Shown here piece by piece: positions 39,224-64,000 of a DNA stretch of 64,000 nucleotides. Location: positions 1-64,000 of the IMG/VR virus record IMGVR_UViG_3300042549_008472. One strand, 5' to 3'. The notes below the pieces were generated by a model that had not been told where the DNA came from, ran no database searches, and worked only from the letters and a program-made list of their open reading frames with translations. Within the stretch, counting starts at the first letter, position 1. Every line of letters starts with the position of its first letter. This stretch comes from a virus. Made by a program: the position numbers and the translations under genes.

Positions 39224-39237
39224 GTTAAAGTTTTAAC
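39224..39237 (+). repeat. Inverted repeat after DNA polymerase stop
   Basis: GTTAAAGTTTTAAC, nearly palindromic, two bases after the polymerase stop codon. An almost identical GTTAAAATTTTAAC follows the metallophosphoesterase gene at 55918-55931 on the other strand. In both places it precedes a structured RNA and a homing endonuclease gene. Confidence 0.5.
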
Positions 39238-39242
39238 AAAGA

Positions 39243-39274
39243 TTTGCACAGTTAAAAATTATTTTGTAGATTTG
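39243..39274 (+). promoter_or_regulatory. Bacteroidota-type promoter for structured leader and endonuclease
   Basis: TTTG at 39243-39246, 20 bp, TAGATTTG at 39267-39274. The predicted start near 39280 falls at the first strand of hairpin I of the downstream RNA. Confidence 0.7.
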
Positions 39275-39278
39275 CTTT

Positions 39279-39382
39279 GTAATTATTTTGTGCGAGATTT
39301 GATTACATTTAAAACACTAAAAAATATAATGCTGAAAGTTTGTTTGATGATACTCGCACTATCGGATAACAAACTTTTCGGC
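39279..39382 (+). ncRNA. Putative kissing-loop RNA, copy 1, 5' of homing endonuclease
   Basis: Hairpin I: GTAATT (39279-39284) with GATTAC (39301-39306), 16-base loop containing GTGCGAG (39290-39296). Hairpin II: AAAGTTTGTT (39335-39344) with AACAAACTTT (39368-39377), an internal loop with tandem G-A, then GATA (39349-39352) with TATC (39360-39363), closing a 7-base loop CTCGCAC (39353-39359). That whole loop is the exact complement of GTGCGAG in loop I, giving a 7-bp kissing helix. A linker containing TTTAAA joins the hairpins. The same fold with different kissing sequence occurs at 55785-55874 on the minus strand. It could be a regulatory leader or an independent RNA. Confidence 0.65.
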
Positions 39383-39398
39383 GTTTATAAGATAAAAT

Positions 39399-40337
39399 AT
39401 GTATAAAATTTGGACTGAATACGAAATTAACTTTTTAATTGAACACTACCCTTATAATGGTGTGAATTATTGTGCTAAAGAGCTAAATAGAAGTTATAGT
39501 TCTATAAGTAGAAAAGCACAGAAACTTCAAATAAATGTAAATGGACAAGTATGTAATATGTTAAAAAAAGAAGGAATTTCAAAATCTAATAAACCTAGAA
39601 GAAAAGATAGAGTAGGTAAAAAATTTATAACTTATCAAGGTTATGAAATTGAGATTATTGAATATTTCGGAGCACGAAATTGTACCATTAGATTTAATGA
39701 TAAAAATAACACTGTTAAATATAACGTAGCGGTAAAAGAAATACAAACAGGAAGTATTAAAAACTGCAATCATCCAGAAGTATTGGGTGTAGGGTATATT
39801 GGGATAGGTGACCATACTGCAAGGGTTGATGGTAAAATGACAAAATGTTATAACACATGGTTCAACATGCTAAGTAGATGTTATCAAAGTACAAATAATA
39901 GAAACTATAGTTATTGTGATGTAGAGGTTTGCGAAGAATGGCATAATTTTCAAAATTTTGCCGAATGGTTTTATGACAATTTTAAGAATAACGGTTGGTT
40001 TTTAGACAAAGATATTCTATGTCCAACTTGTAAAATTTACAGCCCTGAGACTTGCTGTTTTGTACCTAATGAGGTGAATGTACTATTTAGTAAAAATAAT
40101 ATAAGTACGTATAATTTACCAAGGGGAGTCTATCCTAAAGATGGTAAATATGAGTCTGCTATTAGTAAATTTGGTAAACAGTATTACTTGGGATTTTTTA
40201 ATACTATCGAAGAAGCACAACATACTTACAATACAGCTAAAAAAGAGTATATACAAGAAGTCAGTGATAAGTGGAGAGGTATATTAGCCGATAACATCTG
40301 TAATGCCATAAGAGATTTTGATATTAGTTTACTATAA
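39399..40337 (+). CDS. Putative homing endonuclease with AP2 domain
   Basis: 312 residues. N-terminus: a Myb/HTH-like segment (WTEYEINFLIEHYPYNGVNY ... SSISRKAQKL). The middle (about 125-230) has the phage endonuclease core seen in AP2/HNH-type homing enzymes: WFNMLSRCY, EVCEEWHNFQNFAEWF, LDKDILC, KIYSPETCCFVPNEVN. C-terminus: an AP2 DNA-binding domain (LPRGVYPKDGKYESAI ... YYLGFFNTIEEAQHTYNTA). It shares core and AP2 with the minus-strand gene at 50640, but only this one has the HTH. Free-standing, placed between polymerase and a small gene; likely a mobile gene invading intergenic space. Preceded by promoter and structured leader. Confidence 0.75.
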   Translation: MYKIWTEYEINFLIEHYPYNGVNYCAKELNRSYSSISRKAQKLQINVNGQVCNMLKKEGISKSNKPRRKDRVGKKFITYQGYEIEIIEYFGARNCTIRFNDKNNTVKYNVAVKEIQTGSIKNCNHPEVLGVGYIGIGDHTARVDGKMTKCYNTWFNMLSRCYQSTNNRNYSYCDVEVCEEWHNFQNFAEWFYDNFKNNGWFLDKDILCPTCKIYSPETCCFVPNEVNVLFSKNNISTYNLPRGVYPKDGKYESAISKFGKQYYLGFFNTIEEAQHTYNTAKKEYIQEVSDKWRGILADNICNAIRDFDISLL

Positions 40338-40393: not shown

Positions 40394-40444
40394 CAACATA
40401 ATCTGCTGTTTTATTCTTTTTCGCGGCAAAAAACAAATAAAAAT

Positions 40445-50639: not shown

Positions 50640-51404
50640 TTAATCTGTTATTTCTACTTGGTAAGCACACATTGCTTGGTAAACTTCATCTAAAATTAGG
50701 GATTTCCATTTATTAGCAATTTCTTTTATGTATATTTCTTTTGCTTCTTTGTACGCTTGAAACGCTTCTTCTATAGTTTTATACAATCCTAAATATTTCT
50801 GAATACCATTTCCTATTTTTAAATAAGCTTTATATTTATTACCTTCTTTTACTACTCCTATTGGACAACTACCCCTATTAATATTGTTTTTAATAAAAAG
50901 TGTATTGATTTCTTGTGGTACAAAGCAACAAGCTTCAGGTGAATAAACTTTGTTACCCTTGATTAAAATGTCCTTATCTAATTGCCAACCATCAATATAG
51001 TTATTTTCAAACCATTGTGCAAAGTTTTGAAAGTTGTGCCACTCTTCTACTACGCTACATCCCTTATAAGTGGGTTGTTTTTCTTGTGTTTTTTCACTAT
51101 AACATCTTAACAAAAGATTATACCATGTTCTATATTGCTTGTTAGTATTACCTTTATCTGAGGAAATATGGTCACCGTAACCAAAATATCCAACACCAAA
51201 AATTTCTTTATGGTAAGGGTTTTTAACACTCCCCCTTTTTAGATTAGATAGTCTAACTTTCATAATAAAACTATTCTCAAATTTTATATAAACATTATTT
51301 TTATCTACATACTCAACTATAGTTACTTTATAATCTTGCTTAGTTATAAAGACCATATTAGTGTAAAAATTACTATTTAATTCTTGTCTTTCTTTATTTG
51401 TCAT
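50640..51404 (-). CDS. Putative homing endonuclease with AP2 domain
   Basis: 254 residues. It shares the core and AP2 parts with the plus-strand gene at 39399: FGVGYFGYGDHISS, TWYNLLLRCYSE, VVEEWHNFQNFAQWF, LDKDILIKGNKVYSPEACCF, then AP2-like GVVKEGNKYKAYLKI and KYLGLYKTIEEAFQAYKEA. It lacks the N-terminal HTH of that gene. Its start overlaps the next gene by 4 bases, so unlike the other two endonuclease genes it has no structured leader. Likely a mobile gene that landed inside a run of small genes. Confidence 0.75.
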   Translation of the reverse strand: MTNKERQELNSNFYTNMVFITKQDYKVTIVEYVDKNNVYIKFENSFIMKVRLSNLKRGSVKNPYHKEIFGVGYFGYGDHISSDKGNTNKQYRTWYNLLLRCYSEKTQEKQPTYKGCSVVEEWHNFQNFAQWFENNYIDGWQLDKDILIKGNKVYSPEACCFVPQEINTLFIKNNINRGSCPIGVVKEGNKYKAYLKIGNGIQKYLGLYKTIEEAFQAYKEAKEIYIKEIANKWKSLILDEVYQAMCAYQVEITD

Positions 51405-55067: not shown

Positions 55068-55152
55068 TAAATTTCGCGGAAAAAGGATAAAAAACAGACA
55101 TTTTATAGTAAAAATATCAGTTCAAACCTGACTAGAGTGATATGAATGGTAA

Positions 55153-55764
55153 TTATACCGAATCCCATCCAACTCCATAACATATTTTATCAAAACCAGC
55201 TCTGCCAACTTTATCGGAGAATAATTTATATAGATTATCATTATTTTTACCTTTTTTATAATTAGCTCGTATATATCTTACATCTTCATTGGTAAGGTTG
55301 GTGTTGGAATGTTGTTCTCCTTTTACTTTTTTAACGTTATCAAAACAGCCATTTATGTAAGCATGTAATCCATTTTCAGACTTAGTGCACCATTCTATAT
55401 TAGAAATTCTGTTATCCCATTTCTTAAGGTTTAGATGATTTACAATTGGTAGGTTTTCAGGATTATTCACAAAGTGCTCAGCTACAACTCTATGCCCTAA
55501 AAAATTAAATCTTACACTATCTACATACAATATTAATTGCACATAACCATTTGAATAATAGTTGTTTTTTAAAATCTTACTTTTGGTGAATTGCTTTATA
55601 CCATTACTTCTAGTTAATAATCTATCTTTATTTCTAAATCTACCTAAACTACTCACTTCATAATAATCTTCAAAACCTTTAATAGGTAGCCAAATTTCAC
55701 TTTCTAATTCTTCTTTAGTAAACTCAATTACCATTTTTCTTAACTCTTGCGTTGTTTGTTTCAT
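55153..55764 (-). CDS. NUMOD4-HNH homing endonuclease
   Basis: 203 residues from the ATG at 55764 (an earlier TTG at 55791 lies in the RNA hairpin). NUMOD4 motif: WLPIKGFEDYYEVSSLGRFR. HNH core: GHRVVAEHF, LPIVNHLNLKKWDNRISNIE, WCTKSENGLHA, the standard order of this nuclease type. C-terminal helical part (DNLYKLFSDKVGRAGFDKI) may be a DNA-binding helix. Cuts DNA to move its own gene into lacking alleles. It sits between metallophosphoesterase and ligase, with the second kissing-loop RNA copy just upstream. Confidence 0.9.
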   Translation of the reverse strand: MKQTTQELRKMVIEFTKEELESEIWLPIKGFEDYYEVSSLGRFRNKDRLLTRSNGIKQFTKSKILKNNYYSNGYVQLILYVDSVRFNFLGHRVVAEHFVNNPENLPIVNHLNLKKWDNRISNIEWCTKSENGLHAYINGCFDNVKKVKGEQHSNTNLTNEDVRYIRANYKKGKNNDNLYKLFSDKVGRAGFDKICYGVGWDSV

Positions 55765-55784: not shown

Positions 55785-55874
55785 CCCGCAAACAAAAACT
55801 AGGTAGGATAGTCTTCGTAAGCGGGGGTAATAAAAATTCTTTAAAGGTAATTAAGCATCCTACCGAGTAATTAC
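55785..55874 (-). ncRNA. Putative kissing-loop RNA, copy 2, 5' of homing endonuclease
   Basis: Minus strand. Hairpin I: GTAATTA (55874-55868) with TAATTAC (55853-55847), 14-base loop containing GGTAGGA (55864-55858). Hairpin II: CCCGC (55825-55821) with GCGGG (55789-55785), a 3x3 internal loop, a 9-bp stem CGAAGACTA (55817-55809) with TAGTTTTTG (55801-55793), and a 7-base loop TCCTACC (55808-55802). The loop exactly complements GGTAGGA of loop I. Same design as 39279-39382, including a TTTAAA linker, but with different kissing and stem sequences. The hairpin II end is followed by ATTTTTATTTT, so it may also terminate transcription. Confidence 0.65.
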
Positions 55875-55917
55875 TGAGTGTAAATATACACCTTTAACTC
55901 TACACTTCCAAATGAGT

Positions 55918-55931
55918 GTTAAAATTTTAAC
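55918..55931 (-). repeat. Palindrome after metallophosphoesterase stop
   Basis: GTTAAAATTTTAAC, a perfect 14-base palindrome 4 bases after the metallophosphoesterase stop. It is followed on the minus strand by ACACTCATTTG, close to ACAAAGATTTG after the matching repeat at 39224. It marks the 5' border of the second structured-RNA/endonuclease insert. Confidence 0.5.
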
Positions 55932-63798: not shown

Positions 63799-63831
63799 AA
63801 TTGTAATACATTTATAGCGATTAGCGATTAG

Positions 63832-64000
63832 TTATGTGATATTTACGCAGTTGACTAAAGCGTACCACATTCCTTTTTCATCATAACAAGTTTCAGCTTC
63901 TTTATTTATTTTAGCTATTTTAAAAATTAAACCGTTGCAATAATTTACTGTATCCCCGACAGAAAAAACATCACATAACAGTGGTTTTGACTTATTGCCA
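63832..64000 (-). CDS. Small SH3-like protein, cut by window end
   Basis: The last 55 residues of a gene whose start lies beyond the window (CDVFSVGDTVNYCNGLIFKI, then CYDEKGMWYALVNCVNIT). Beta-rich with a GDTV turn, similar in layout to the 65-residue protein at 41204. Function unknown. Confidence 0.5.
   Translation of the reverse strand, partial: GNKSKPLLCDVFSVGDTVNYCNGLIFKIAKINKEAETCYDEKGMWYALVNCVNIT

What the first reader, a model, noticed from the sequence alone, without database searches (positions are those of the whole stretch)
39224..39398. Kissing-loop RNA, copy 1: a fold shared with an unlinked locus
Two hairpins (39279-39306 and 39335-39377) are joined by a perfect 7-bp loop-loop helix (GTGCGAG with CTCGCAC, the latter being a whole 7-base apical loop). 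At 55785-55874 on the opposite strand the same layout recurs with GGTAGGA/TCCTACC. Shared parts: GTAATT stem of hairpin I, the ATTAC then TTTAAA linker, 7-base loop II, and a GTTAAA-TTTTAAC repeat upstream. The kissing bases differ but stay complementary, which is compensatory change. Both precede homing endonuclease genes. I know no named RNA with this design.
Basis: seen in the sequence. Interest (0 to 1): 0.85.

Follow-up and report, generated by a model that had tools for sequence, protein, structure and literature searches.

The report
Kissing-hairpin leader RNA before homing genes
A small RNA fold in which two hairpins grip each other by their loops sits at the very start of the transcripts of many phage homing-endonuclease genes; about thirty copies in thirteen phage records keep the loop pairing while its letters change, so it is a real, unnamed RNA family that probably controls how much of these selfish genes is made.

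Summary
Both window copies lie directly after a Bacteroidetes-type promoter and 20 nt before a homing-endonuclease start codon. Scans of whole virus records found about 30 copies, in Bacteroidetes-type phages and in two phages reading TGA as glycine. With an ORF start within 70 nt, 13 hits score at least 36 (12 judged true) against 0 in shuffled sequence. Eight loci found without using the loops all keep loop complementarity; where loop letters differ, the partner almost always changes to match. One pairs 8 of 8 through a loop outside the aligned region. Stem mismatches are 25 G-U to 1 A-C, marking the RNA strand. Downstream genes are mostly mobile endonucleases of unrelated families (HNH, NUMOD4-HNH, GIY-YIG, LAGLIDADG, endonuclease VII), plus a DnaD-like loader, winged-helix proteins and apparent noncoding RNAs. 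Hairpin II ends in a T run, so the best guess is a transcription attenuator whose terminator loop is captured by hairpin I. Function is inferred and the direction of effect unknown. No Rfam family matches.

The parts
39224..39237 (.). palindrome GTTAAAGTTTTAAC upstream of promoter, copy 1
   Evidence: the only other GTTAAA-n-TTTAAC in the window is at 55918-55931
39244..39274 (+). Bacteroidetes-type promoter TTG-N20-TAGATTTG
   Evidence: same promoter form at other genes of this phage, e.g. 40363, 65458-
39278..39307 (+). hairpin I (5'-terminal), loop holds kissing bases GTGCGAG 39290-39296
39328..39385 (+). hairpin II: lower stem, internal loop, upper stem GATA/TATC, 7-base apical loop CTCGCAC 39353-39359 that pairs with loop I; stem then TTTT
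   Evidence: -20.4 kcal/mol with loop held open
39399..40337 (+). HNH homing endonuclease gene, 312 aa (phrog_953)
   Evidence: absent with its leader from the equivalent site in G009
55918..55931 (.). palindrome GTTAAAATTTTAAC, copy 2
55881..55911 (-). promoter TTG-N20-TATATTTA, copy 2
55847..55874 (-). hairpin I, loop holds GGTAGGA 55864-55858
55785..55825 (-). hairpin II, apical loop TCCTACC 55808-55802, CCCGC/GCGGG base followed by ATTTTTATTTT
55153..55764 (-). NUMOD4-HNH_3 homing endonuclease gene, 203 aa from ATG 55764

Best explanation
This is one family of promoter-proximal leader RNAs. Transcription starts at or just before hairpin I, which displays 6-12 bases in its loop. About 35 nt (TGA=Gly phages) or 55 nt (Bacteroidetes-type phages) later the apical loop of hairpin II emerges and pairs with them, giving a loop-loop helix. 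Hairpin II is shaped like an intrinsic terminator (stem, then a T run) and usually lies 7-40 nt before the start codon, so the gene can only be transcribed through it. Shown by sequence and covariation: the two hairpins, the kissing helix, the promoter position, the stem plus T run, the cis position. Inferred: the element is a transcription attenuator in which loop I controls whether hairpin II stops RNA polymerase, keeping expression of costly, often selfish genes low or timed. I cannot tell whether kissing strengthens or blocks termination. It travels with the endonuclease as one cassette (promoter + leader + gene).
For: About 30 copies with one anatomy. Compensatory kissing changes between homologous leaders. 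Loop-blind finds: 8 of 8 loci (five at E<1e-5, L264b at E 0.19 in the same call, two held-out) keep 6-8 bp of complementarity; L358 was found only through hairpin II and its tail, and its loop I, outside the aligned part, pairs 8 of 8 (ATGGAACC/GGTTCCAT). Isolated mismatches in the stems are 25 G-U to 1 A-C on this strand, so RNA of this strand is selected. Kissing duplex -4.6 to -14.1 kcal/mol; spacing tightly clustered, median 56 nt and 35 nt. A T run of at least 3 follows or overlaps the 3' arm of hairpin II in every curated copy. Leaders alike in sequence precede HNH, GIY-YIG, LAGLIDADG and T5orf172-type genes. Site without the cassette: the G009 polymerase gene is followed directly by the next gene. 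Precedent: T4-type phage homing endonucleases are held down by leader RNA structure (PMC2988022).
Against: No transcript or termination data. The simple terminator scan finds none in either window copy, because of internal loops and because copy 1 has only TTTT. Some copies precede non-endonuclease genes or no gene. G012 keeps a 95%-identical leader without the endonuclease, which also fits a free-standing small RNA. Most relatives of these endonucleases, including all 42 loci from cellular genomes, lack the leader, so it is not needed for them to work.
Confidence: 0.5

Rival explanations
1. A 5' stabiliser or translation-control fold: the 5'-terminal hairpin and kissing complex protect the mRNA end from decay and leave just the roughly 20 nt needed for 30S loading.
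For: Hairpin I starts a few nt after the -7 box in most copies; distance from hairpin II to ATG 7-40 nt, mostly 13-25; Bacteroidetes do not rely on Shine-Dalgarno (own knowledge).
Against: Does not explain the T run after the stem in all copies nor copies before apparently noncoding RNA (L271, L282, L302, L358, L285).
Confidence: 0.22
2. A free-standing small RNA with its own promoter and terminator that acts in trans through its loops; the downstream gene is expressed only by read-through.
For: Promoter and terminator-like end bracket about 100 nt; G012 keeps the leader with no endonuclease; within a phage the kissing sequences differ between copies, apart from one identical duplicated pair in G007.
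Against: In coding copies a start codon follows within about 40 nt with no room for another promoter, so the gene is in cis; the loops are already consumed by self-pairing; no conserved target sequence seen.
Confidence: 0.18
3. A DNA-level element (protein site, insertion or recombination structure) rather than an RNA.
For: The cassette is present or absent as a unit with the endonuclease.
Against: Strand-specific G-U bias 25:1, against 1.3:1 expected from composition; fixed position just after a promoter; no sequence common to all copies.
Confidence: 0.05
4. Chance similarity of AT-rich hairpins.
For: Without the downstream-ORF filter the descriptor's real and null counts are close, and held-out counts at the lower thresholds are only modestly above null.
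Against: Loop-blind homologues all keep complementarity, including an 8-bp pairing outside the aligned region.
Confidence: 0.02

Closest known systems
RBS-sequestering leader hairpins of T4-type homing endonucleases (I-TevI, segB, mobE; PMC2988022)
   Same: RNA structure in the leader of phage homing endonucleases, thought to limit their expression
   Different: single hairpins that mask a Shine-Dalgarno site on transcripts from upstream promoters; no kissing helix, no shared family across endonuclease types
Plasmid kissing systems (ColE1 RNAI/RNAII; pT181/pIP501 attenuation) (own knowledge)
   Same: loops of about 7 bases fully paired; RNA pairing that governs expression or replication
   Different: those pair two molecules, sense and antisense; here both loops lie in one RNA
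Guanidine-II (mini-ykkC) and purine riboswitches (own knowledge)
   Same: loop-loop contact between two hairpins in a leader
   Different: those have conserved ligand-binding sequence; here no loop sequence is common to all copies; no Rfam match
Classical transcription attenuators and the put antiterminator RNA of HK022 (own knowledge)
   Same: promoter-proximal folded RNA that meets a terminator
   Different: no alternative antiterminator stem recognised; the switch would be a tertiary loop capture
STAXI motif (PMC2864571)
   Same: repeated pseudoknot RNA near genes for DNA-acting proteins
   Different: tandem pseudoknots in that paper's description; here two kissing hairpins once per gene

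Membership tests
any Rfam 15 family | score above the family's gathering threshold | tested here: not met
   only chance-level hits at the leaders; the only gathering hits are two tRNAs elsewhere
kissing-loop leader family proposed here | two hairpins whose loops are complementary over at least 6 bp | tested here: met
kissing-loop leader family proposed here | compensatory change in the kissing helix between homologues | tested here: met
kissing-loop leader family proposed here | function is on the RNA strand (G-U, not A-C, tolerated) | tested here: met
   (25:1); loop-blind subset 4:0 by reading
intrinsic-terminator attenuator | stem ending in a T run before the gene | tested here: met
   the formal scan is negative on the window copies
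intrinsic-terminator attenuator | termination occurs and is regulated | not testable with these tools
   needs transcript data
intrinsic-terminator attenuator | mutually exclusive antiterminator stem | not tested
   none searched for systematically; loop II pairing is compatible with hairpin II in most copies
T4-type endonuclease leader hairpin | hairpin pairs with a Shine-Dalgarno site | tested here: not met
   no Shine-Dalgarno between hairpin II and ATG in the window copies
group I intron | interrupts a gene | tested here: not met
   polymerase and DNA-transfer proteins match their profiles to near the ends; no Rfam intron hit

The most novel reading that the evidence does not exclude
A portable regulatory RNA whose only conserved property is self-complementary loops, in which capture of a terminator's own loop by an upstream hairpin sets gene output, shared by unrelated families of homing endonucleases and by replication genes in phages of two distant host groups, with loop sequences kept different between copies in one genome.
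Probability: 0.35. Interest if true: 0.88.

Novelty: new variant of a known kind. Interest (0 to 1): 0.72.

Why it matters
It is an unnamed RNA family that sequence searches would miss because only the pairing is conserved. It shows one leader fold serving HNH, GIY-YIG, LAGLIDADG and endonuclease VII genes, which implies that selfish genes trade control elements, and it gives a testable system for whether a tertiary loop contact can switch an intrinsic terminator.

Tried and rejected
Intron or split gene: upstream proteins are complete. Rfam at gathering and E-value thresholds: nothing. Close relatives of the phage's DNA polymerase in viral contigs: none. Cultured phages FL-1 (1-50 kb), MaF61 (1-150 kb) and PTm1 (50-100 kb): no copy. 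Tblastn of the L244 downstream protein in phage records: none. HNH loci from 42 places in cellular genomes: no copy. Descriptor without promoter or ORF filter: many false hits on both strands of AT-rich coding DNA. MAFFT alignment A4 misaligns loop I, so covariation was counted by reading homologous pairs instead. L188 is a GC-richer candidate left out of the count; the L245 hits were rejected as cassette repeats.

Full report
OBSERVATION. Each begins 3-6 nt after a TTG-N20-TAnnTTTR promoter and ends about 20 nt before an ATG; the genes are an HNH endonuclease (phrog_953, E 6e-60) and a NUMOD4-HNH_3 endonuclease. The upstream DNA polymerase and DNA-transfer genes match their profiles to near the ends, so nothing is split. 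The window is part of a 79,494-base virus record.

MORE COPIES. Reading upstream of related endonuclease genes showed a third copy in L011. I wrote a descriptor (hairpin I with a loop segment K, hairpin II whose apical loop holds the complement of K, two-part stem II) and ran it on endonuclease loci and then on whole virus records with no regard to gene content. In 1.15 Mb, hits with an ORF start within 70 nt number 13 at score >=36 (shuffled: 0) and 21 at >=34 (shuffled: 1); without the ORF filter, 56 against 46 at >=34. Twelve of the 13 look true; the L245 hit is a cassette repeat. True copies were curated by eye: window 2; G001 L240, L241, L244; G002 L248, L251, L253; G003 L264 two; G005 L271; G007 L255 three, L256, L257 three; G008 L259 two; G009 L296; G011 L290, L292, L293; G013 L282, L285, L286 two; L302 as a near-duplicate of L282; and L354, L358 (G012) and L375 (G004) from held-out records. 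That is about 30 copies in 13 records. G007 and G008 have many in-frame TGA codons and read well as table 25.

COVARIATION. The cleanest case is: three records share about 710 bases at about 97% identity, but K changes from GTGATACT to GTGATAAC and the partner from AGTATCAC to GTTATCAC, with matching changes in the upper stem of hairpin II. Others: copy 2 GGTAGGA/TCCTACC against L286 minus GTTCGAG/CTCGAAC in otherwise alignable leaders; L240 ATACGAGC against L290 GTACGAAC with both partners changed; L241 ATGCGAA, L293 CTGCGAA, and L286 plus ATGCAA with one base lost on both sides. Some of these were found with the descriptor, which demands complementarity. I therefore made sequence-only profiles of subgroups and looked at loci that only they found: L264 minus 13500, L251, L293, L257 minus 1755 and 3757 (all E<1e-5) and the weak L264 minus 198 (E 0.19). 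All keep 6-8 bp of loop pairing, one with a G-U. Some of them share the loop sequence of their nearest homologue (L264 minus 13500 with L292, L251 with L290), so they test retention rather than change. In 0.62 Mb fetched afterwards as a held-out set, the profiles found L354 and L358. The L358 hit covers only hairpin II and its tail; its loop I lies outside the alignment and has an unrelated sequence, yet pairs 8 of 8, ATGGAACC with GGTTCCAT. In the same set the descriptor's top hit, L375, precedes a GIY-YIG gene; below score 38 the descriptor is not far above its null there. One search shows a further compensated closing pair, CG[CTCGAAC]CG to CA[CTCGAAC]TG.

RNA, NOT DNA. Across curated copies, isolated mismatches inside stems are 25 G-T, 1 A-C and 11 other; composition predicts a G-T to A-C ratio of 1.3. 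The initial descriptor allowed G-T, so this is partly biased; reading for the five distinct loop-blind leaders, I count 4 G-T and 0 A-C. Off-diagonal pairing of loop I of one copy with loop II of another is usually 2-4 bases, against mostly 6-13 for a copy's own loops (the diagonal is selected for).

ANATOMY. Spacing between K and its partner has median 56 nt in the Bacteroidetes-type phages (range 40-75) and 35 nt in the TGA=Gly phages (one at 58). Kissing duplex energies are -4.6 to -14.1 kcal/mol, hairpin II with its loop held open -7 to -31 kcal/mol, and a run of at least 3 T follows or overlaps the 3' arm in every curated copy. The stock terminator scan does not call the window copies, so 'terminator' is inference from shape; that scan allows no internal loops, which these hairpins have.

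WHAT IT PRECEDES. By profile: HNH (L240, L290, L253, L296, L286 minus), endonuclease VII (L286 plus), GIY-YIG (L241, L251, L375), LAGLIDADG_2 (L292), T5orf172 (L264), HNH_3 (L255 minus 2360), NUMOD4-HNH (L255 plus, L257 minus 3757); L259 minus 13598 is an HNH relative by tblastn and alignment. Others: a DnaD-like helicase loader (L259 minus 11009, phrog_2514 E 1e-28), winged-helix-like proteins without family (L244, L248, L256), small ORFs, and regions without ORF: L271/L282/L302/L358, followed by about 480 nt that fold far better than shuffles (z -6.9), and L285, whose downstream part does not. L293 has only a short endonuclease-VII-like ORF. Relatives of these endonucleases in operons or in cellular genomes have no leader.

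MOBILITY. In G009 the orthologous polymerase is followed directly by the promoter of the gene that in the window lies beyond the endonuclease, so promoter, leader and gene came or went together. Relatives L005-L007 likewise lack copy 2 and its gene. In G012 a 95%-identical leader stands at the site where G013 has leader plus HNH gene, with the HNH gene missing: a scar of gene loss, or a leader that works alone.

MECHANISM. A gene that starts 7-40 nt after hairpin II must be transcribed through it. A stem plus T run in every copy, promoter-proximal position and loop capture point to transcription attenuation; the T4 literature says phage homing endonucleases are generally held down by such leader structures, though by masking ribosome sites (PMC2988022). 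Since loop II is about the size of its pairing partner, the final fold allows kissing and stem II together; this argues for modulation of the terminator rather than a classical either-or switch. Whether kissing raises or lowers read-through is open, and stability, translation or trans-acting roles are not excluded.

NOVELTY. No Rfam 15 family matches, and paper searches found no description, though subscription papers and supplements were not searchable.

Noticed in passing
window 40415-40425 and 55075-55086; also L003 near 9430, L005, L262 near 19520: A second leader type after the same promoters: a closing stem followed by CTGTTTT-ATC-TTTTTCGCGG-AAAA, recurring before several phage genes.
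   Followed up: partly
L282 14400-14860 (also L271, L302, L358): About 480 nt conserved, strongly folding apparently noncoding RNA directly after a kissing leader, with hairpin swaps between near-identical phages; no Rfam match.
   Followed up: partly
window 63800-64000 and L003 1-900; L245 10600-11900: Arrays of small ORFs separated by repeats such as GCTTATAAC.../GTTATAAGC and CGCTAACG.../GTTAGC that look like gene-cassette attachment sites.
   Followed up: no
L003 4415-6403: Ribonucleotide reductase small subunit gene with an intein-like LAGLIDADG insert; its 5' leader at 70532 minus also holds a GC stem with T run.
   Followed up: no
L257 1755-1646 and 3757-3649: Two identical kissing leaders in one TGA=Gly phage before different genes, a recent duplication.
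   Followed up: yes
window 50640-51404 minus: A further HNH-type gene of the same family as copy 1's, without promoter or leader.
   Followed up: partly
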